In this document: positions 9,853-47,122 of the stretch, one piece after another | Position numbering within the stretch: the first letter of the stretch is position 1 | Layout: every line of letters starts with the position of its first letter | Assembly (NCBI RefSeq): GCF_008107695.1 | Contig: NZ_VIRG01000036.1 | Coordinates: 62,001 to 126,000, forward strand | Reading direction: 5' to 3' | Origin: Stappia sp. BW2 | GTDB taxonomy: Bacteria; Pseudomonadota; Alphaproteobacteria; Rhizobiales; Stappiaceae | Length of the DNA: 64,000 bases | Translations under genes and position numbers: made by a program | The notes under the pieces: generated by a model | What the model was told of the DNA's origin: nothing | Seen by the model: the letters and a program-made list of their open reading frames with translations, nothing else | Database searches by the model: none

Positions 9853-12144
9853 ATGCACGATCTGTCTGGGGAATCAGGCAAATTCGATTCGGGTCATTCA
9901 GCGTCGGCAACGGCGCCCGACGAACTGCGCCCGACGCACTCAAGCCTGTTCGGCATTTCTTCCAGCCTTGTCATCATCCTGATGTTCTGCGCCCTTATTT
10001 TTTCCTTCGGTGCCGTGCTGTTCAAGGTCGTGGTGGCTGAACACGAAGCCGAGGCGCGGGAAACACGGTCAGTCGCTCGCGTTTTTGAAAACCACAAGCA
10101 ATTGCTGCTGCGCGAGATGGAGCGCTACGCCGCGTCCAACGCGGCCTATCAGAACATCGATACCAATCTGTCTCTGGACTGGATCAAGGCACGTTTCGGT
10201 GTCGACATGGCGTGGGATTTTGCCCACGACTACACGGTGCTTCTGGGCCGTGATGGTAAGATCGTCTTCTCTTCAAACGCCGGTGGCAACGAGATTGCCG
10301 AAGACTTTTCCACGCGGCTCCGGACACGTATCAACGGCACGCTGGAAAGCATCCGTGGCAACTACGTCAAAGCTCTGGTCCGGCGTGGATCGGGCGAGAT
10401 CCGTTTTGCCGGTGCCCTTGCCGATATCTCCGCCATCGACGTTGTCGAGATCGACAAGCTCCCCTACATCGTTGCGGCCTTCGCGGTCGTGCCGGATCCC
10501 GGCGGCATCGAGATGTCCTTCGGGCCCCCCAACGTTCTCGTGACAGCCTTTGAGATCGACCCGGCGCATCTCAGCAATCTTCTGTCCAGCCTGGCCCTCG
10601 ACAATCTGCAGCTGGCGTCTGATATCCCGGACGGCATGGTCGGCATTCCGGTGAAAAATGGCGCTGGGTCAGTGCTTGGTTACCTTGTCTGGCATCCGAT
10701 GAGCCAGGCTTCAAGGATCATCCTGTCCTCGCTTCCGGTCCTGTTGCTGTCTCTCGGCGTCATTCTGACCTTTGCCCTGATCGCGCTGCGGCAGAACGCC
10801 AACGCCAAGGCGCGGCTGGCAGCGCGCGAGCAGGAAGCCAGATATGCCGCCGATCATGATTCTCTGACCGGCTTCGTCACACGGCGGTATTTCCACGCCG
10901 CGGCCACCAAGAGGTTGACCGTGAGCGAGTATCAGCATCGTGGTGTCTGGCTGGTTTATCTTGATGTCGACAATCTCAAGCAGGTGAACGACATTCACGG
11001 TCATACCGTGGGCGACGCCCTGGTGGTTGCTCAGGCGGAACGCATCAGGTCCGTTCTCGGCCCGTCCGATCTTGTCGCCCGCAGCGGTGGCGACGAATTC
11101 CTGATCTTGACGGATCGCTGGCAAACCGCGGAACAGGCCGTTCAGGAAGCGGAGAAGCTGTTCGAGAAGCTGCGTCAGCCTTTCAAGTATGAAGGAAAGC
11201 GTATCGAGACGTCTGTCAGCGCCGGCATTGCCAACTTCCCCGATAACAGCCAGACGTTGACGGACCTGATCCGGGCGGCCGATATCGCCCTTCAGCGCTG
11301 CAAGATGGAGCAGAAAAGCTCGTTTCGTATCTACGACGAGCGGATGGACCATCACCTGCGCCAAATACGCGAAATCCGGGTGGAGCTGGATTCAGCGTTG
11401 CGCGAAGCGCAGTTCGAACTGTTTTACCAGCCGATCATCGACGCGCGGTCAGGCCAACTGGCTTTCTATGAGGCTTTGATCCGCTGGCGGCATCCGTATC
11501 GGGGTCTGGTGCAACCGACCCTGTTTCTGCCGATTGCCCAGGACGCCGGGCTCATGCCGGCTATCGGAGCCTGGGTTCTGGAGCGGGCACTTTGCGATGC
11601 CAGTAGCTGGACGAAGACCGGCGTGTCCGTCAACGTCTGTTCAAGCCAGATTCAAAGACCGAGTTTCGAGAAGAAAGTCGCCTTACTGCTGAAGAAATAC
11701 GATTTTCCGCCGGATCGCCTCATTCTGGAAATCACCGAGGACCTGATGTTGGAAGAATGCGCGCAGACACGGGAGACCATTGGCAAGCTGCGCGAGATGG
11801 GTGTTGGCCTTGCCATTGACGACTTCGGCACCGGATTTTCCAGCCTGAGCTACCTGCACAAATACAGCTTCGACAAGATGAAGATCGATCAGAGCTTCGT
11901 ATCGCGCATTGGTGAGGATGAGGAGGCCGACATGGTCGTCCGCTCCATGTTGAGCCTTGCCAAGGTGATGCACATGCAAAGCGTCGGCGAGGGCGTGGAG
12001 ACGGAAGCACAGCGAGATTTCCTGGCAGAGGCGGGCTGCGATTTCCTCCAGGGCTATCTGTTCGACAGGCCGCAGCCCCTTTCGGAGTTGAGGCCGCACG
12101 TTCCCTTTCAGGTGGCAAAGGCGCTACGCTCCGCAAGGGGGTGA
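9853..12144 (+). CDS. Membrane CHASE4-GGDEF-EAL cyclic-di-GMP enzyme
   Basis: This 763-residue inner-membrane signalling protein has a membrane segment at about 33-60, a periplasmic sensor region of CHASE4 type (about 65-285), a second membrane segment (about 290-315), then GGDEF and EAL domains. The diguanylate cyclase motif is intact (GGDEF, residues 412-416). The phosphodiesterase motif EALIRW starts at 540, with DDFGTGFSS, KIDQSF, EGVETEAQ and FLQGYLFDRP also intact, so both activities are possible. Which one dominates cannot be told from sequence. The RBS before 9853 is weak, but no better start is visible. It is a single gene, convergent with preA, and has no obvious link to pyrimidine use. 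Confidence 0.92.
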   Translation: MHDLSGESGKFDSGHSASATAPDELRPTHSSLFGISSSLVIILMFCALIFSFGAVLFKVVVAEHEAEARETRSVARVFENHKQLLLREMERYAASNAAYQNIDTNLSLDWIKARFGVDMAWDFAHDYTVLLGRDGKIVFSSNAGGNEIAEDFSTRLRTRINGTLESIRGNYVKALVRRGSGEIRFAGALADISAIDVVEIDKLPYIVAAFAVVPDPGGIEMSFGPPNVLVTAFEIDPAHLSNLLSSLALDNLQLASDIPDGMVGIPVKNGAGSVLGYLVWHPMSQASRIILSSLPVLLLSLGVILTFALIALRQNANAKARLAAREQEARYAADHDSLTGFVTRRYFHAAATKRLTVSEYQHRGVWLVYLDVDNLKQVNDIHGHTVGDALVVAQAERIRSVLGPSDLVARSGGDEFLILTDRWQTAEQAVQEAEKLFEKLRQPFKYEGKRIETSVSAGIANFPDNSQTLTDLIRAADIALQRCKMEQKSSFRIYDERMDHHLRQIREIRVELDSALREAQFELFYQPIIDARSGQLAFYEALIRWRHPYRGLVQPTLFLPIAQDAGLMPAIGAWVLERALCDASSWTKTGVSVNVCSSQIQRPSFEKKVALLLKKYDFPPDRLILEITEDLMLEECAQTRETIGKLREMGVGLAIDDFGTGFSSLSYLHKYSFDKMKIDQSFVSRIGEDEEADMVVRSMLSLAKVMHMQSVGEGVETEAQRDFLAEAGCDFLQGYLFDRPQPLSELRPHVPFQVAKALRSARG

Positions 12145-39255: not shown

Positions 39256-41040
39256 TCAGATTTCCGGCCCGCTCCAAAGGTTCGATTTCGCGGCCTTCTT
39301 GGGCGTGCGGCTTTCCGAGATATGTGCCGTCAGCGGGTCGAGCGTGCACAGCGCGTCATATTGGCTGAGAAACACCTGTCCGCTCAGATGCTTCAGGAAA
39401 TCGGTTCGCTTCAGCCGGTCCATCACAGGTCCCTTCACTTCCGACAGGTGGAAGGAAACGCCGGAGTCCTGCAGGCGATGGTTGATTTCCTCAAGACTTT
39501 CCAGGGCGCTTGCGTCGATCTCGTTCACGGCCGGGCACATCAGCACAACGTGCTCGATGTCGGGCTTTTCGGCTACCAGCGCATAGATCCGGTCTTCCAG
39601 AAACCGCGAATTGGCGAAGAACAGGCTTTCATCCACCCGAAGCGTCAGCACCCGGTCGCCGGTGGCCACGGTGTGCCGGTCGACGTTCCGGAAATGCTCG
39701 GTTCCCGGCACCACACCGACGATGGCCATATGCGGACGGCTGCTGCGGTAGAGATAAAGCGCGATCGACAGGGCAACGCCGGTCACCACACCCGGCTCGA
39801 CGCCAAAGAACAACGTGATCAGGATCGTCGCCGCCATCGCGGTAAAATCGCTCTTCGAATAGGCGAACGTCCGCTTGATCGCGTCAAGGTCGACCAGAGA
39901 CAGAACGGCGACGATGATGGTGGCGGCCAGCGTCGCCTGCGGCAGATAGGTCAGCAGCGGGGTCAGGAACAAGGTAGCCAGCGCAATACCGACAGCGGTG
40001 AAGGCGCCCGCGGCGGGTGTTGCAGCTCCAGCGTCGAAGTTGACGACCGAGCGCGCGAACCCGCCGGTCACCGGATAGCCGCCAGAAATGGCGGAAGCGA
40101 TGTTGGAGGCCCCGAGGCCGATCAGCTCCTGGTCGGGCTCGATCCGCTGACGCTTCTTGGCGGCCAGCGTCTGGGCAACCGAAACGGATTCCACAAAGCC
40201 GATGACCGAAATCAGCAACGCGGGAGTGGCAAGGGCAAGCCACAGCTCGCTGTCGAAACCGGGCAGATGTGGCACCGGCAGACCGGAGGGAATGTCGCCG
40301 ATGATGCGCACGCCCTTGTCACCAAGCTGAAACGCGGCGGAGATAATCGTGGTCACGGCAACGGCCGCCACCGGCCCGGCCTTGGTGAGGATATCGGCAA
40401 AAAACGGTTTCATTCCCATGCCGAGCAACAGTTTCTTCAAGCCCTTGCGAACCCAGAAGAGAAAAGCGGTGGCAGAGACGCCAATTGCGAGGGTGATCCA
40501 GTTGATCTCGCCCAGATGCTGAAAGATCGAGCCCAGGTTTTCGTAGAGCGTATGCCCGCTCGCCCTGACCCCGAGGATATGCTTGAGCTGACTGGACGCG
40601 ATCAGCAGACCCGACGCGGTGATGAAGCCTGAAATCACCGGATGGCTCAGGAGGTTTGCCAGAAAGCCGAGCCGGAAAAACCCCATGGCGATCAGCATCA
40701 GGCCGGACAGGAAAGCAAGAATGATCGCCGCGCCCAGATATTCCGGGGTGCCCTGTTTGGCGAGTTCGCCAACGGCCGACGCCGTCATGAGCGAGACCAC
40801 GGCAACCGGTCCGACCGCCAGCGCGCGGCTGGTGCCGAAAAGGGCATAGGCGACAAGCGGGAGAATGGACGCGTAAAGCCCGACTTCCGGCGGCAGACCT
40901 GCCAGCAGCGCATAAGCAAGAGACTGCGGGATCAGCATGATCGTCACGATCAAGGCGGCGACGAGGTCGTTTGTCGCTGTTTCCTTGTCATAGCTTTTGC
41001 CCCAGTCGAGAATGGGCAGGTAGCGCTTGAGGCGGATCAT
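39256..41040 (-). CDS. SulP-family anion permease with STAS domain
   Basis: This 594-residue permease has a membrane part (about residues 20-430; GLYASILPLVAYALFGTSRALAVGPVAVVSLMTA is the SulP signature region) and a cytoplasmic STAS domain (about 460-570, VLMCPAVNEIDASALESLEEI). SulP proteins move sulfate, bicarbonate or other anions. As the last gene of a sulfide oxidation operon, export or exchange of sulfite or sulfate is a reasonable role, but this is inference. A 12-bp perfect hairpin at 41070-41097 separates it from the SQR fusion gene. Confidence 0.9.
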   Translation of the reverse strand: MIRLKRYLPILDWGKSYDKETATNDLVAALIVTIMLIPQSLAYALLAGLPPEVGLYASILPLVAYALFGTSRALAVGPVAVVSLMTASAVGELAKQGTPEYLGAAIILAFLSGLMLIAMGFFRLGFLANLLSHPVISGFITASGLLIASSQLKHILGVRASGHTLYENLGSIFQHLGEINWITLAIGVSATAFLFWVRKGLKKLLLGMGMKPFFADILTKAGPVAAVAVTTIISAAFQLGDKGVRIIGDIPSGLPVPHLPGFDSELWLALATPALLISVIGFVESVSVAQTLAAKKRQRIEPDQELIGLGASNIASAISGGYPVTGGFARSVVNFDAGAATPAAGAFTAVGIALATLFLTPLLTYLPQATLAATIIVAVLSLVDLDAIKRTFAYSKSDFTAMAATILITLFFGVEPGVVTGVALSIALYLYRSSRPHMAIVGVVPGTEHFRNVDRHTVATGDRVLTLRVDESLFFANSRFLEDRIYALVAEKPDIEHVVLMCPAVNEIDASALESLEEINHRLQDSGVSFHLSEVKGPVMDRLKRTDFLKHLSGQVFLSQYDALCTLDPLTAHISESRTPKKAAKSNLWSGPEI

Positions 41041-41069
41041 TTTTCTTGGCCTTTGTCGGGGCTGGTAGA

Positions 41070-41097
41070 AACACGAGCCGGGAAGCCGGCTCGTGTT
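41070..41097 (-). other. Intercistronic hairpin between SQR fusion and SulP genes
   Basis: AACACGAGCCGG pairs over 12 bp with CCGGCTCGTGTT around a four-base loop. The tail on the minus strand (TTCTACC) is a poor T run, so partial termination is more likely than a full stop. Confidence 0.6.
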
Positions 41098-41133
41098 GAA
41101 GGTTGGTGTATCGGGGCCCGTATGCCGGGCTTC

Positions 41134-42804
41134 TTATGCTGCCGTTACTTTTTCAGGCTTGGCCAGCCATTCCTTGCCACGCAGCATGGCGCGCCAATAG
41201 ATGGGAGGCAGGATGCGCTCCTTCAGGAGCCATGCAGTGCGCGTTGGCCTTGTTCCGTCCACCAGCCAACGCGGGAAGCTCGGCAACAGCGTTCCGCCAT
41301 AGCCGAACTCGGCCAGGACAATCTTGCCGCGCTCCACTGTGAGCGGACAGGAGCCATAACCGTCATATTGCGCTGTTGCGCTGTGACCTGCGATATCGGA
41401 GACGATGTTCTCGGCAACCACCGGTGCCTGTTTGCGCGCGGCCGCGGCCGTCTTGGCGTTCGGCGCGTTCATGACATCACCAAGGGACCAGATGTTATCG
41501 AAGGTCTTGTGGCGCAGTGTGGTCTGGTCGACGTCGACCCAGCCGGCGGCATCCGCCAGCGGCGAGACGCGGATGAAGTCAGGCGCCGTCTGCGGCGGCG
41601 TGACATGCATCATGTCGAAGTCGACCTCCACCTGACGCGCGTCCTTTTCCGGTTCCTTCACCTCGAACACGGCCTTTTTGGCAGGGCCGTCGACGGCAAT
41701 CAGATTGTGGAAGAAGTTGAGGTCGGCATCATAGCGCTTCACGTATTCCATCAGCGCGGGCACATAGTCCTTCACGCCGAACAGGACACCGCCAGCATTC
41801 ATGAACTGAATGTCGATCTTGTCGAGCGTGCCGGATTTCAGCCAGTGGTCGGCTGAGAGATACATGGCTTTCTGCGGTGCACCTGCGCATTTGATCGGCA
41901 TCGGCGGCTGGGTGAACAGCGCTTTGCCCTGCTTCATGTCCTTCACCAGTTGCCAGGTGTAGGGCGCCATGTCGTAGCGATAATTGGAGGTCACACCGTT
42001 CTTGCCGAGCGTGTCGACCAGGCCCTCCACCTTGTGCCAGTCGAGCTTCAGCCCGGGGCACACCACCAGACGCCCGTATTTGACCACCCGGCAACCGTCC
42101 AGAACGACGGCATTGTCCTTCGGTTCGAAGGCGGCGACGGCGGACTTGATCCAGTGAACGCCCTTGGGAATAAGGGATCCCATGGTCTTGGCAGTGTCAG
42201 GCGCGTTGAAGATGCCGCCGCCGACCATCGTCCAGCCCGGCTGATAGTAGTGGACGTCCGCCGGATCGATGATGGCGATCTCCAGATCCGACTTGCGGGC
42301 AAGCAGACTGGAGGCCACCGAGATCCCGGCTGCGCCGGCCCCCACGATGACGATGTCGAAACGAGCATCCTCGGTAGTCTCGGTCGGCGTGCGTCCGCCA
42401 TTGGCGATGCGCCGCACCACCCCCGCCATGTCGTAGCCGGCGGCCTTGGTTTTCGTGAGGATATCCGAAAGTGGCAGATTTTCGGCCTGCGACAGCGACC
42501 AGAGCGTTGCCGAGCGCGTGCCGGTCCGGCAATAGGCCAGGATTGGTTTCGGCAGGCTTTCCATCAACCGGCCGAACTCTTCTGCGTCCTCATCGCCGAC
42601 CTTGCCTGCGACGATGGGCAGGTAGCGCGCCTCAAGGCCGAGCTTTTTGGCAGCAACCTCGATTTCCTCGAACGAAGGCTGGTCGGCGCCTTCCCCGTCC
42701 GGGCGGTTGCAGATCACCGAGCGAAAGCCCTGCTGTGCAAAGTCGGCCACGTCCTCGGGTTTTACCTGGGGAGCTACCGATATCTGAGAATTGATTGCTT
42801 TCAT
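41134..42804 (-). CDS. DUF442 phosphatase/sulfurtransferase-like domain fused to sulfide:quinone oxidoreductase
   Basis: This 556-residue bifunctional protein has residues 1-115 as a DUF442 (TIGR01244-type) domain with the Cys loop YCRTGTRS (Cys92), as in dual-specificity phosphatases and rhodanese-like proteins. Residues 145-556 form an FAD-dependent SQR, starting with IVIVGAGAAGISVASSLLA. Both redox cysteines of the mitochondrial-type (type II) SQR are kept: Cys306 in KCAGAPQK and Cys486 in YGSCPL. SQR oxidises sulfide and hands the sulfur to an acceptor, and the fused domain may take it on. It lies between an MBL persulfide-dioxygenase-like gene and SulP. Two small hairpins lie in the 138-bp gap upstream. 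Confidence 0.9.
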   Translation of the reverse strand: MKAINSQISVAPQVKPEDVADFAQQGFRSVICNRPDGEGADQPSFEEIEVAAKKLGLEARYLPIVAGKVGDEDAEEFGRLMESLPKPILAYCRTGTRSATLWSLSQAENLPLSDILTKTKAAGYDMAGVVRRIANGGRTPTETTEDARFDIVIVGAGAAGISVASSLLARKSDLEIAIIDPADVHYYQPGWTMVGGGIFNAPDTAKTMGSLIPKGVHWIKSAVAAFEPKDNAVVLDGCRVVKYGRLVVCPGLKLDWHKVEGLVDTLGKNGVTSNYRYDMAPYTWQLVKDMKQGKALFTQPPMPIKCAGAPQKAMYLSADHWLKSGTLDKIDIQFMNAGGVLFGVKDYVPALMEYVKRYDADLNFFHNLIAVDGPAKKAVFEVKEPEKDARQVEVDFDMMHVTPPQTAPDFIRVSPLADAAGWVDVDQTTLRHKTFDNIWSLGDVMNAPNAKTAAAARKQAPVVAENIVSDIAGHSATAQYDGYGSCPLTVERGKIVLAEFGYGGTLLPSFPRWLVDGTRPTRTAWLLKERILPPIYWRAMLRGKEWLAKPEKVTAA

Positions 42805-42942
42805 GGGTCCTGTCCGCCTCCTCCCGGCGATGAAGTCGAGACCGGGTTACGCAGGGGCCCGCCCCGTGTTTGATACGGGGCTCTGGCCGACTGCTCCGGT
42901 TCTGTTAGAGGGCCCGCAGGAAGGCCCTGTTGAAGACCTCGA

Positions 42943-43836
42943 TCAGAGACCGTTCACCGGCACTTTCAGGAAGGTCTTGCCGCTATTGTCCGCGGGCGGC
43001 AGCTTGCCGGCGCGCATATTCACCTGCAGCGAGGGGATGATCAGCTTCGGCATATCGAGCTGGGCATCGCGTTCTGTCCGGAACTTGACGAATTCTTCCT
43101 TGGTCTTGCCGCCGCCAACATGGATGTTGTGTTCCTTTTCGGCGCCCACGGTGGTCTCCCACTGGATGTCGCGGCCATTCGGGCCGTAGTCGTGGCACAT
43201 GAACAGGCGCATATCGTCCGGCAGCGCCAACACCTTCTGGATGCTGTCGTAAAGTGTTGCCGCGTCGCCGCCCGGGAAATCGGCACGGGCCGACCCGCCG
43301 TCGGGCATGAACAGCGTGTCGCCGACAAAGGCCGCATCGCCCATAACATGCACCATGCAGGCCGGAGTATGGCCGGGCGTATACATGGCAAAGGCTGTCA
43401 TCTCGCCAATCTGATAAACATCGCCGTCAACAAACAGACGGTCGAACTGGCTGCCGTCGCGCTGGAACTCCGTGCCTTCATTGAACACCTTGCCGAAGGT
43501 TTCCTGAACCACGGTGATCTTGTCACCAATGCCCAGTTTGCCGCCCAGTTTCTGCTGGATATACGGCGCGGCCGACAGGTGATCGGCGTGGACATGGGTC
43601 TCGATCAGCCATTCCAGCTTGAGATCCTTCTCGCGGATAAAGGCGATGATCTGATCCGCATGGTCATAGGTGATGCGGCCGGCGGCGTAGTCGATATCCA
43701 TCACGCTGTCGACAACGGCGCAGGCGTTGGAGGCCGGGTCCTTGACCACGTAGCTGATGGTGTTGGTGGCCGGGTCGAAGAAGGGGGTGACGTCAGGTTT
43801 GACATCCATGTCGACCGGATAGTTCGAATTGCTCAT
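42943..43836 (-). CDS. MBL-fold persulfide dioxygenase-like protein (ETHE1/Blh type)
   Basis: This 297-residue metallo-beta-lactamase-fold protein has the metal motif THVHADH near residue 80, the ligand His in PGHTPACMVH, Asp in VGDTLFMPDGGSARADFPGG and His in CHDYGPNG. The pattern and length match Blh/persulfide dioxygenases, which oxidise glutathione persulfide to sulfite with one iron. In Blh of Agrobacterium and Xylella this domain is fused to DUF442; here DUF442 is fused to SQR in the next gene instead. The operon context strongly supports sulfide or persulfide removal. Confidence 0.88.
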   Translation of the reverse strand: MSNSNYPVDMDVKPDVTPFFDPATNTISYVVKDPASNACAVVDSVMDIDYAAGRITYDHADQIIAFIREKDLKLEWLIETHVHADHLSAAPYIQQKLGGKLGIGDKITVVQETFGKVFNEGTEFQRDGSQFDRLFVDGDVYQIGEMTAFAMYTPGHTPACMVHVMGDAAFVGDTLFMPDGGSARADFPGGDAATLYDSIQKVLALPDDMRLFMCHDYGPNGRDIQWETTVGAEKEHNIHVGGGKTKEEFVKFRTERDAQLDMPKLIIPSLQVNMRAGKLPPADNSGKTFLKVPVNGL

Positions 43837-43872
43837 ATCAGTCTCCCGTTTGTTTTTGCCGGCAGAGCCGGG

Positions 43873-44307
43873 TCAGGCCTTTGCGGGTTGCTGGCGATGG
43901 CCGAGGGTGATCATCCATCTTGCGGTCAAAATGCCCGCGACGATAGCACCGGCGGTCAACACAGGCTCCATGCCGAGGCCGAGCACCGGCACGAGGCCGC
44001 CCGGGCAGAAGCCGCTGAGGCCCCAGCCGATGCCGAAAACCGCCGAACCGCCGATCAGCTTGGCGTCGAGGTCGGTTGTTGTGGGCAGGGTGAAACCCTG
44101 AGCCAGCAGCGGTGTGTGCATCCGGAAGACCAAACGATAGCCGATGGCCGTGACAAGAAGCGCACCGCCCATCACGAAGGCAAGGCTCGGGTCCCAGGTA
44201 CCCGCCACATCGAAGAAGTTCAACACCTTGGCAGGGTCACCCATGCCGGAAATCAGGATGCCGCAGCCGAAGAGGAGGCCAATGGCAAAAGCGGAAAGCA
44301 GTTTCAT
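43873..44307 (-). CDS. YeeE/YedE-type (DUF6691) membrane protein
   Basis: This 144-residue protein has about four membrane segments and the motif LSGFCPGGLVP near residue 65, with a Cys that is conserved in the YeeE/YedE sulfur transport family. It forms the second half of a split transporter with the gene upstream. GGAGG, lying in the last codons of the upstream gene, is 8 bases before the ATG at 44307 and sets the start; an earlier Met would lie inside that gene. Likely substrate: thiosulfate or another sulfur anion. Confidence 0.85.
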   Translation of the reverse strand: MKLLSAFAIGLLFGCGILISGMGDPAKVLNFFDVAGTWDPSLAFVMGGALLVTAIGYRLVFRMHTPLLAQGFTLPTTTDLDAKLIGGSAVFGIGWGLSGFCPGGLVPVLGLGMEPVLTAGAIVAGILTARWMITLGHRQQPAKA

Positions 44308-44311
44308 GCCG

Positions 44312-44740
44312 TTATCCTCCAAAGACGTGTCGTGTCAGGTAGACGGTCACACCCGCAGTGATCACGAAGGTCACGGTGGCAACGATGGACCGTGCCGAGA
44401 GGCGCGAGATACCGCAGACACCGTGCCCGCTTGTGCAGCCGGAGCCATAGGTGGTGCCGATACCGGTCAGAAAACCGCCGACAACCAGCAGAAGCGGTGA
44501 GGACGGGACGGTGATTTCCGGCAACTGGCCCGTCACACCCAGCATGATCAGCGGGCTGGCAACCATGCCGGCCAGAAAGGCGGCGCGCCACGCCCAGTCC
44601 TGATTGAGCTGGGTCGTCAGAAATCCGCTGGCAATGCCGTTGATGCCGGCAATGCGCCCGAGCACAGCCATCAGGGCAACCGTGGCAATGCCGATCAGCG
44701 TTCCGCCCAGGAAACTCATAAGGGGTGTAAAGTCAGTCAT
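44312..44740 (-). CDS. YeeE/YedE-type membrane protein
   Basis: This 142-residue protein has about four membrane segments and the signature GSGCTSGHGVCGISRLS near residue 100, the Cys-containing loop of YeeE/YedE proteins that binds thiosulfate-like compounds. It is the first gene of the sulfide oxidation operon. AAGGGCGC precedes the ATG. An ATTC-N8-GAAT box lies 23-38 bp upstream, placed to block transcription. Similar pairs accompany bigR-blh operons in rhizobia and Xylella. Confidence 0.87.
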   Translation of the reverse strand: MTDFTPLMSFLGGTLIGIATVALMAVLGRIAGINGIASGFLTTQLNQDWAWRAAFLAGMVASPLIMLGVTGQLPEITVPSSPLLLVVGGFLTGIGTTYGSGCTSGHGVCGISRLSARSIVATVTFVITAGVTVYLTRHVFGG

Positions 44741-44762
44741 GATGCGCCCTTGATTACGATAT

Positions 44763-44778
44763 ATTCAAATATATGAAT
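44763..44778. promoter_or_regulatory. SqrR/BigR-type operator
   Basis: ATTC-AAATATAT-GAAT fits the ATTC-N8-GAAT pattern reported for the persulfide-sensing ArsR-family repressor SqrR of Rhodobacter, a BigR homologue. The palindrome extends to 44761-44780 (ATATTCA-N6-TGAATAT). It lies 23 bp before the operon's first start codon. No ArsR-family gene is in the window. Confidence 0.75.
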
Positions 44779-44780
44779 AT

Positions 44781-45043
44781 AAGAAAAAAGTATCAAGGGG
44801 TATTTTTAAGGGGCCACTGGAAAGGGAAGAAGCTAACCCCTCAGGAAACTGGCGGCTACACAAGCTTCTGGACACAAGATTGGCCAGTACAGCCGAAAGT
44901 CGCATTCGCAGAAACTGAAAAGGCTTTGGGCGACCTGATGAAGCCGCTCAATCGTCTGCCACCCGCAACCTCGACCCGCGTGCGGTTGCTTGCGGTCGTC
45001 TTAGTGCTTCTCTTCCGTGAACAGAGTGACTGTGACGAGACGG
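44781..45043. other. Intergenic region without recognised gene
   Basis: This 263-bp stretch follows the stop of the DedA/PAP2 gene and precedes the sulfide operon promoter. A plus-strand frame (44773-45087) crosses it but has no ribosome site or family, and it runs into the neighbouring gene. Nothing else was seen. Confidence 0.5.
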
Positions 45044-47122
45044 TCACCGGGCCCGAGGATTGGTCCGTGGCTTATCGGTCGGATTGACGTCGGACGGAGG
45101 CGTTGCAGGCACCGGCCCATAGTCAAAGCCGAGCACGACTTCGGTGCCGTCCGCCCGCGTTCGCGTTACCGCGCCGGGCAGCAGATGGGCCGGGTTGTCG
45201 GTCGACGCCGGCGTTTCGATATCCGTCTTGGGACCGGAAAATTCGCCCATCGGACGCAGGATGTCCTCATGCACCACGCTGCCAAGGTAAAGCGGATGCA
45301 GGTGTCCCGCATTCAGGATCGCATACTGGCTCGGCCAGAGCCGCAGCACCCAGCGACCGCTTTTTTCCGCGTCCGCAGACTGGTCCTTGCGGATGAGCAT
45401 GAGCTCCGGTTGCCGCCCGTTCTGGCTGCGCGGCAGGATCGGCAGGGAATCCGGCGGTGTCTTGCCTTCCACGAAACCGTTTGCGCTCGAGAGGGACCAT
45501 TTGGGTGGGATCTGCCAGCCATTGGCTTCCGAGATCTTAGCAAAGCGGTCCAGTGACCCGGAATACTGGATCACCAGCGGTTCTTCCGTATCGCCGTTCA
45601 GTTCGATGCGCTCCGAGGGCAAGGCCCGCCAGCCCGCCGCGAGCCAGCCTGCCGAGGTCAGCACTTCCTTGTGGGACCGCGGGTGATAGATTTGGAGGGC
45701 CTTCTCATAGCTATTCAACAGGTGCCAGGCACCAAAGATGCCGAGCGTCGCCACAACGATAGCGGCAAGCGTCGTCCGGCCGATCTTCTCGTTGTGGATC
45801 GGGCCGAACACGAAGGCGAAAGCCGAGACCATGCCGATGCCGAACAACAGCCCCGCCAGGACGTCCGACATCCAGTGAGCGCCGAGGTAGACGCGCGAAA
45901 AGCCGATGGTGATCACCAGCGTTGCGGCAACGGTAAAAATGCTGGCCTTGGCCCAGCGGCTGAGATCATGCGCGATCAGCACGGCGCAGATACCGTAGAG
46001 CACCGCGTTCAGCGTCGCGTGGCCGCTCGGAAAGCTGTAGGCGTCGGCCCCTGCATAAAGCTCGATAGGCCGCGACCGGTGCAGCATCATCTTGACCAGG
46101 GGCACGAACAGGGCGGTGCCGGCCATGGCAATGACGAAACCGATGCCGCGCCGCCAGGCTTTCCGCAGGAACAGATAGGCGGCAACCGCAACGGAGACAG
46201 CGGTCACCACGATGCCGTCTCCGAGAGAGGTCACAAAGATCATAATCCTGTCACCGACGGGGGTGCGCAGGCTGTCGAACAGGTTCAGGATGGCAAGGTC
46301 TGCCCGCACCATCGGTTCGCCGGGAGCGATTTCGCCGACGATCCAGAAGAAAGCCGGCAGGGAAATCAGCAGGATCAGCGCCGAGGCCAGCATACCGGCC
46401 GAGCGTGGGTGCATGGGATCGAAATTGAGTGCGATCCACCTCGAGACGCGGTCCTGGCGCCGGGCGATGCGTTTGATGATGGCCGCATGAGTGTTGGGAA
46501 ACAGCGGCAGAACGATCAGGATCAGCCAGCGGCCAAGCATCACCGCCAGAAAGACGATAACCAGCAATGCCCCGAGCACCAGCGCCAGCCGTCCGCTGAT
46601 CTGGCCGATGGCGCCTAGTGCCGAACCGGCGATGATGCCAGGAGCGATATGGGCAACCGTCCAGGCAAAGGCGGAGGTAATGTTGACCACCGAAAACCGG
46701 GTGAAATTCATGCCGGCCATGCCGGCGATGCCTGGAACCACCGATTTCACGCCGGGCACGAAACGGCCGATAAAGACGCTCTTGCCACCGTGCCTCTTGA
46801 AGAAATTCTCGCCGCTTTCCACGATGTCCGTGTATTTGTTCAGCGGCCACATCGTCTTGAGCTTGTCCTTGAAGGTGTAACCGATCCAGTAGGAGATCGC
46901 ATCGCCTGCGGTCGCGCCCAGGGTTGTCCAGATGAACAGAGGCACGGGATCCAGCTTGCCAAGCCCGACCAGCGTACCTGCACCCACCAGAACCACTGTC
47001 GTCGGCACGAACAGGCCGATCAGGAACAGCGCTTCGCCCATGGCGGCCAGAAAACAGATCAGACCTGCCAGGGATGGGTTGTCCGCGATGAAGGTCAGGA
47101 CGGGATCAAGGTATTCGGTCAC
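45044..47122 (-). CDS. DedA - PAP2 phosphatase - LssY_C fusion membrane protein
   Basis: This 692-residue protein has three parts. Residues about 1-210 are a DedA/SNARE-associated membrane domain (FIGRFVPGVKSVVPGIAGMAGMNF), the family of lipid scramblase-like proteins. Residues about 230-455 are a PAP2 phosphatase with KMMLHRSRP (near 341-349), SFPSGHA (362-368) and SRVYLGAHW (406-414), the three catalytic motifs. Residues about 480-680 resemble the LssY C-terminal domain. It probably dephosphorylates undecaprenyl pyrophosphate or a phospholipid and moves the lipid across the membrane. It is a single gene, divergent from the polyphosphate kinase gene. Confidence 0.9.
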   Translation of the reverse strand: MTEYLDPVLTFIADNPSLAGLICFLAAMGEALFLIGLFVPTTVVLVGAGTLVGLGKLDPVPLFIWTTLGATAGDAISYWIGYTFKDKLKTMWPLNKYTDIVESGENFFKRHGGKSVFIGRFVPGVKSVVPGIAGMAGMNFTRFSVVNITSAFAWTVAHIAPGIIAGSALGAIGQISGRLALVLGALLVIVFLAVMLGRWLILIVLPLFPNTHAAIIKRIARRQDRVSRWIALNFDPMHPRSAGMLASALILLISLPAFFWIVGEIAPGEPMVRADLAILNLFDSLRTPVGDRIMIFVTSLGDGIVVTAVSVAVAAYLFLRKAWRRGIGFVIAMAGTALFVPLVKMMLHRSRPIELYAGADAYSFPSGHATLNAVLYGICAVLIAHDLSRWAKASIFTVAATLVITIGFSRVYLGAHWMSDVLAGLLFGIGMVSAFAFVFGPIHNEKIGRTTLAAIVVATLGIFGAWHLLNSYEKALQIYHPRSHKEVLTSAGWLAAGWRALPSERIELNGDTEEPLVIQYSGSLDRFAKISEANGWQIPPKWSLSSANGFVEGKTPPDSLPILPRSQNGRQPELMLIRKDQSADAEKSGRWVLRLWPSQYAILNAGHLHPLYLGSVVHEDILRPMGEFSGPKTDIETPASTDNPAHLLPGAVTRTRADGTEVVLGFDYGPVPATPPSDVNPTDKPRTNPRAR

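What the first reader, a model, noticed from the sequence alone, without database searches (positions are those of the whole stretch)
39256..44780. Sulfide oxidation operon under a SqrR/BigR-type box but without the regulator
The operon YeeE-YeeE-MBL-DUF442/SQR-SulP has a perfect ATTC-N8-GAAT site 23 bp before its first gene. BigR/SqrR genes usually adjoin such operons, but no ArsR-family gene is in the window. The regulator must act in trans.
Basis: partly seen in the sequence, partly recalled or inferred. Interest (0 to 1): 0.6.

Follow-up and report, generated by a model that had tools for sequence, protein, structure and literature searches.

The report
Sulfide-oxidation operon with a distant repressor
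This marine bacterium carries an ordinary set of genes for removing toxic hydrogen sulfide, and comparison with its relatives points to a sulfur-sensing repressor encoded far away on the genome as the likely switch.

Summary
The operon and the site are real. On the minus strand run yeeE1, yeeE2, an ETHE1-like MBL, a DUF442/type-II SQR fusion and SulP. A TATATTC-N8-GAATATA palindrome over the likely -10 box lies 22 bp before yeeE1. The bare motif is not rare (about one chance hit per window), but a TTC-N8-GAA site precedes yeeE1 in 42 of 45 genomes of the genus (Roseibium/Labrenzia). No ArsR match lies on the window's 515-kb contig. Elsewhere the genome has two SqrR/BigR-type ArsR proteins with both sensor cysteines: SoxR in a sox cluster, and an orphan between an L,D-transpeptidase gene and creA. 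Among 66 family genomes with no SqrR-type ArsR found beside yeeE1, the box is present in 50 of 50 with the orphan and 0 of 16 without. Four genomes keep the box with the orphan as their only SqrR-type ArsR. The orphan is the best trans candidate, but few independent losses carry this, only one (G084) in a clearly matching operon, and SoxR cross-control is not excluded. 'Acts in trans' is supported; 'regulators usually adjoin such operons' is not, for DUF442-SQR operons (0 of 80 by tblastn). New member of a known kind, modest interest.

The parts
44763..44778 (.). Operator-like palindrome ATTC-N8-GAAT; extended arms TATATTC-N8-GAATATA at 44760-44781
   Evidence: conserved before yeeE1 in 42 of 45 same-genus genomes
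44768..44796 (-). Sigma-70-like promoter TTGATA-17-TATATT; the -10 lies in the centre of the palindrome
   Evidence: 2 promoter-like sites found in the region, 1.7 expected by shuffles; a promoter-like pair overlapping the site recurs in 39 of 41 sites
44312..44740 (-). yeeE1, half-size YeeE/YedE-type membrane protein (sulfur transport family)
   Evidence: PF04143 E=1.3e-7
43873..44322 (-). yeeE2, second half-size membrane protein (DUF6691)
   Evidence: PF20398 E=1.3e-39
42943..43836 (-). MBL-fold protein, ETHE1/Blh-type persulfide dioxygenase by similarity; HVHADH motif
   Evidence: human ETHE1 chain E=4.5e-20
41134..42804 (-). Fusion of a DUF442 sulfurtransferase domain with a type-II (human-like) sulfide:quinone oxidoreductase
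   Evidence: PF04273 E=1.5e-27, TIGR01244; human SQOR chain E=1.5e-95 over residues 149-544
39256..41040 (-). SulP-family anion transporter with STAS domain
   Evidence: PF00916 E=7.7e-108, PF01740

Best explanation
A sulfide-detoxification operon repressed in trans by an orphan SqrR/BigR-family ArsR protein encoded between an L,D-transpeptidase gene (next to cysS) and creA, on another contig (G000:C28:149131-149469). Without sulfide the reduced dimer sits on TATATTC-N8-GAATATA over the -10 box and blocks RNA polymerase. When sulfide raises persulfide or polysulfide, the two conserved cysteines are bridged by sulfur, the repressor lets go, and SQR (sulfide to persulfide), the dioxygenase (persulfide to sulfite), the DUF442 sulfurtransferase, the YeeE halves and SulP are made. 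Shown here: genes, site, its conservation, its overlap with a promoter-like sequence, the orphan with both cysteines, and the shared presence and absence of orphan and box. Inferred from studied relatives: DNA binding, sensing chemistry, repression, enzyme activities and transport.
For: Two SqrR/BigR-type ArsR proteins in the genome; the orphan matches R. capsulatus SqrR (E=7.8e-20) and Xylella BigR (E=1.6e-18) with both cysteines aligned; both cysteines in 41 of 41 orthologues; orthologues form one clade, 100/99. Box before yeeE1 in 42 of 45 same-genus genomes; the 3 without it (G015, G016, G084) are the 3 without the orphan, and in these cysS and creA are neighbours with no orphan hit between them. 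No SqrR-type ArsR found beside yeeE1: orphan present, box in 50 of 50; orphan absent, box in 0 of 16. G086, G048, G049 and G051 have the box and no second SqrR-type ArsR at E<=1e-12. The site overlaps a promoter-like sequence in 39 of 41 cases.
Against: Kinship: the orphan-less set is G015+G016 (sisters), G084, and 15 genomes of one genus, so about three events. Only G084 keeps a clearly matching operon (MBL 85%, SQR 79%); the yeeE1 hits of G015 and G016 (48-58%) and of g22 (41-55%) may belong to different operons. G102 and G091 have the orphan but no box, beside an adjacent ArsR. The orphan has no such site within 400 bp upstream in 41 loci and no sulfur genes as neighbours. The sox clusters carry the same core site, so the motif does not tell the two paralogues apart. 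No binding or induction data.
Confidence: 0.57

Rival explanations
1. SoxR of the sox cluster (near G000:C104:90506-90856), alone or together with the orphan, represses the operon, so that thiosulfate and sulfide oxidation are controlled together.
For: SoxR is the closer match to R. capsulatus SqrR (E=1.7e-31 against 7.8e-20). TTC-N8-GAA sites (score 8 or more) occur in intergenic or flanking parts of 5 of 6 sox clusters examined, including that of this genome (L066:12091-12112). In Hyphomicrobium, SoxR and sHdrR bind the same DNA fragments (PMC12423496, passages).
Against: G086, G048, G049 and G051 keep the box with no second SqrR-type ArsR. G016 has SoxR in a sox cluster but no box before yeeE1 or before the MBL gene. 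This does not exclude a shared role where both are present.
Confidence: 0.27
2. The palindrome is not an operator: it is a chance AT-rich pattern around a conserved -10 box, or belongs to another kind of regulator.
For: The bare motif is common, and the -10 lies inside it, so part of the conservation is the promoter.
Against: The arms and the N8 spacing persist while the interior varies, and the -10 lies in the centre of the site in 30 cases but on its left arm in 7. The score reached was matched in at most 1% of shuffled upstream regions. No sigma-54-like TGG-N9-TGC or GG-N10-GC in the 300 bp upstream.
Confidence: 0.1

Closest known systems
SqrR regulon of Rhodobacter capsulatus
   Same: Two-cysteine ArsR repressor of sulfide-oxidation genes; site described as ATTC-N8-GAAT (PMC9774250, passages); represses sqr and a rhodanese gene, released by persulfides (PMC9995734, passages).
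   Different: The proposed regulator here is a separate clade of the subfamily with about 44% identity to the SoxR paralogue, which is the closer match to SqrR; the target is an operon with yeeE halves, dioxygenase and SulP.
bigR operon of Xylella and Agrobacterium
   Same: DUF442 sulfurtransferase, ETHE1-type dioxygenase and a transporter under a two-cysteine ArsR repressor (PMC5823870, passages).
   Different: No regulator gene in the operon; DUF442 is fused to SQR instead of to the dioxygenase.
SoxR/sHdrR pair of Hyphomicrobium denitrificans
   Same: Two paralogous sulfane-sulfur-sensing ArsR repressors in one alphaproteobacterium (PMC12423496, PMC10451225, passages).
   Different: The second paralogue here lies in no sulfur cluster but beside an L,D-transpeptidase gene and creA.
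DUF442-SQR operons of other Alphaproteobacteria
   Same: All 80 kept relatives carry the fusion over nearly its full length; most also have MBL and SulP next to it.
   Different: The yeeE pair is found in only 22 of the 80, and the AT-rich TTC-N8-GAA box before yeeE1 only in the 8 Roseibium/Labrenzia loci.

Membership tests
SqrR/BigR subfamily of ArsR (orphan regulator) | ArsR-type winged helix and sequence similarity to SqrR and BigR | tested here: met
   HTH_5 over cut-off; SqrR E=7.8e-20, BigR E=1.6e-18
SqrR/BigR subfamily of ArsR (orphan regulator) | Two conserved sensor cysteines | tested here: met
   Aligned with both SqrR and BigR cysteines; 41 of 41 orthologues
SqrR/BigR subfamily of ArsR (orphan regulator) | Groups with SqrR or BigR in a tree | tested here: inconclusive
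   Own clade; the SqrR reference falls on the SoxR side and BigR on a long branch; few columns
SqrR/BigR subfamily of ArsR (orphan regulator) | Persulfide-released binding to ATTC-N8-GAAT DNA | not testable with these tools
   needs binding assays
bigR operon | Regulator gene bigR in the operon | tested here: not met
   No ArsR match on contig C39
bigR operon | Blh: DUF442 fused to the ETHE1-type dioxygenase | tested here: not met
   DUF442 is fused to SQR; the MBL protein stands alone
Type-II (human-like) SQR | Similarity to human SQOR with the two catalytic cysteines (roles recalled) | tested here: met
   E=1.5e-95; KCAGAPQK and GYGSCPL align with the human cysteines
ETHE1-type persulfide dioxygenase | MBL fold with HxHxDH motif and similarity to known dioxygenases | tested here: met
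   HVHADH in the sequence; ETHE1 chain E=4.5e-20; activity not testable here

The most novel reading that the evidence does not exclude
Regulator turnover at one operon: within one bacterial family, yeeE sulfide operons are run by at least three different two-cysteine ArsR lineages (a divergent HlyU-like neighbour in genus g23 and G044, another upstream neighbour in G015/G016, and the unlinked orphan near cysS and creA elsewhere), with the operator kept, moved by 8 bp against the promoter, or lost in step with the regulator.
Probability: 0.38. Interest if true: 0.45.

Novelty: new member of a known kind. Interest (0 to 1): 0.33.

Why it matters
It names a testable regulator for sulfide detoxification in a marine genus that lives with corals and algae, and offers a comparative case of a repressor that is unlinked from its operon. 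It also corrects the expectation that DUF442-SQR operons normally carry their own BigR/SqrR gene.

Tried and rejected
Motif rarity as evidence: rejected, because the bare ATTC-N8-GAAT is expected about once per window.

A divergent ORF at 44773-45087 (+) as a hidden regulator: rejected; no Pfam or NCBIfam match, and its last 23 residues resemble the C-terminus of a DUF1176 gene present in several relatives.

An ArsR elsewhere on the same contig: none at E<=0.001.

A site before the orphan's own gene: looked for, none at score 8 or more in 41 of 41 loci. A first attempt failed to find the start in most loci and was not used.

A library search for 'DUF442' with 'SQR' listed 3 papers, of which passages of one, PMC5823870, were seen.

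A regulon from genome-wide motif scans: inconclusive; 26 loose places, not followed gene by gene. The second exact TATTC-N8-GAATA place (C50:66528) was not followed up either.

The 2017 SqrR and 2007 BigR papers were not held, so the ATTC-N8-GAAT consensus is taken from passages of PMC9774250.

Limits of the counts: 83 of 84 yeeE1 genomes (G062 not fetched); second yeeE1 copies of G069 and G090 dropped; G052 counted as box-positive by hand because its site lies just beyond the 220-bp span; G023's orphan is a fragment at a contig end and was counted as present; genomes outside the tree were called orphan-positive from identity and score; the box was counted at score 8 or more, while the shuffle control (mononucleotide shuffles) used 9 or more; 'adjacent ArsR' means a tblastn hit (E<=1e-6, orphan and SoxR queries only) in the locus held, which for 30 loci had only 1.5 kb a side.

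Full report
What is there. The window is bases 62001-126000 of contig C39 of a 6.44-Mb draft genome. Its SQR is 96% identical to that of Roseibium aggregatum IAM 12614, whose contig length (278,618) equals that of G002:C40, so the genus is Roseibium/Labrenzia. Five genes run on the minus strand: yeeE1, yeeE2, an ETHE1/Blh-type MBL protein, a fusion of DUF442 with a type-II SQR, and a SulP-STAS transporter. They fit oxidation of sulfide to persulfide and on to sulfite; activities and transport steps are inferred from relatives.

The site. ATTCAAATATATGAAT lies at 44763-44778, 22 bp before yeeE1. About 1.15 such motifs are expected per window by chance, so the motif alone proves little. In 42 of 45 same-genus genomes a TTC-N8-GAA site with AT-rich or symmetric flanks is found upstream of yeeE1, and in 41 of these 42 the top-scoring one starts 35-42 bp before the ATG. 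Shuffled upstream regions reached a score of 9 in 0 to 1% of trials. The N8 interior varies while the arms stay. A promoter-like TTGATA-17-TATATT overlaps it (the scan alone is not above chance). A promoter-like pair overlaps the site in 39 of 41 cases; the -10 sits in the centre of the palindrome in 30 and on its left arm in 7, so site and promoter have shifted against each other by 8 bp between subgroups.

No local regulator. No HTH_5 or HTH_20 match lies on C39. Elsewhere there are two SqrR/BigR-like proteins, 45% identical to each other. One is SoxR on C104, inside a sox cluster. The other is an orphan on C28 that lies between an L,D-transpeptidase gene and creA, with cysS (recognised by eye) beyond. 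Both keep the two sensor cysteines. In G003 the operon (0.56 Mb), a SoxR-type gene (1.95 Mb) and the orphan (4.59 Mb) lie far apart on one 6.17-Mb contig.

Which regulator. Orphan orthologues form one clade (41 rows, support 100/99), apart from SoxR and from the ArsR genes that stand beside yeeE1 in other members of the family (few columns, deep forks unsure). I examined 83 of the 84 family genomes with a yeeE1 hit. With no SqrR-type ArsR found beside yeeE1, 50 of 50 orphan-bearing genomes have the box and 0 of 16 orphan-less ones do. With an adjacent ArsR (17 genomes), 13 have orphan and box, 2 have the orphan but no box (G102, G091), and 2 have neither (G015, G016). Fisher's p is 1.2e-15 for the first set but ignores kinship. 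The orphan-less genomes are G015 and G016 (sisters, support 100/98), G084 (place unresolved), and 15 genomes of genus g22, so there are about three events. In G015, G016 and G084 cysS and creA are neighbours and the orphan is missing from its usual place.

Strength of that pattern. G084 is the cleanest case: its operon clearly matches (MBL 85%, SQR 79%), and both orphan and box are absent. The yeeE1 hits of G015 and G016 (48-58% identity) and of g22 (41-55%) are more distant and may belong to other operons; G016 has a separate MBL-SQR-SulP locus, also without a site upstream of MBL. On the other side, G086, G048, G049 and G051 have the box and no SqrR-type ArsR other than the orphan at E<=1e-12. 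The orphan is therefore the best candidate. SoxR cannot be excluded as a partner: 5 of 6 sox clusters examined carry a TTC-N8-GAA site, and paralogues share sites in Hyphomicrobium (PMC12423496, passages). I set the odds of the orphan reading at 0.57; the weak orthology of most orphan-less cases is why it is not higher.

In the 80 kept DUF442-SQR loci of named genomes, six ArsR queries found no SqrR-type gene in the flanks held (at most 5 kb a side, shorter in some). A family HMM found one weak hit in a downstream flank (L322, E=1e-7). An adjacent two-cysteine ArsR is seen in 14 genomes of g23, in G044, G015 and G016.

What is known. SqrR represses sqr and a rhodanese gene in R. capsulatus (PMC9995734, passages), and its recognition site is given as ATTC-N8-GAAT (PMC9774250, passages). 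The bigR operon couples DUF442 and ETHE1 activities (PMC5823870, passages). Nothing here departs from that kind of system. What is added is a likely trans regulator and its presence and absence in step with the operator. The library searches made listed no paper whose title or shown abstract describes control of this operon in Roseibium; most listed papers were not opened and only part of each listing was shown.

Noticed in passing
window 45013-45081 (+): Likely remnant of a DUF1176-type gene: the end of the ORF at 44773-45087 matches (23 residues, 43%) the C-terminus of a 349-379 aa protein encoded divergently from yeeE1 in relatives such as L086 and L074.
   Followed up: partly
L066:5028-13311 (own contig C104): A sox gene cluster with soxR, soxS, two full-length YeeE/YedE-type transporters and a second MBL protein; a TTC-N8-GAA site lies between the MBL gene and the second transporter at 12091-12112.
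   Followed up: partly
G014, G015, G022: In these same-genus genomes the SQR query matched only its DUF442 part (residues 2-134 at most) as its best hit, so DUF442 seems to stand alone there.
   Followed up: partly
L218, L222, L224, L233 (genus g22, upstream of yeeE1): Upstream regions hold a different motif, TATATTAG with a nearby CTAAT or CTAAA (for example in L218), perhaps the operator of another regulator.
   Followed up: no
yeeE1 upstream regions of 39 genomes: The -10 hexamer lies in the centre of the palindrome in 30 genomes but on its left arm in 7, a shift of 8 bp between operator and promoter.
   Followed up: partly
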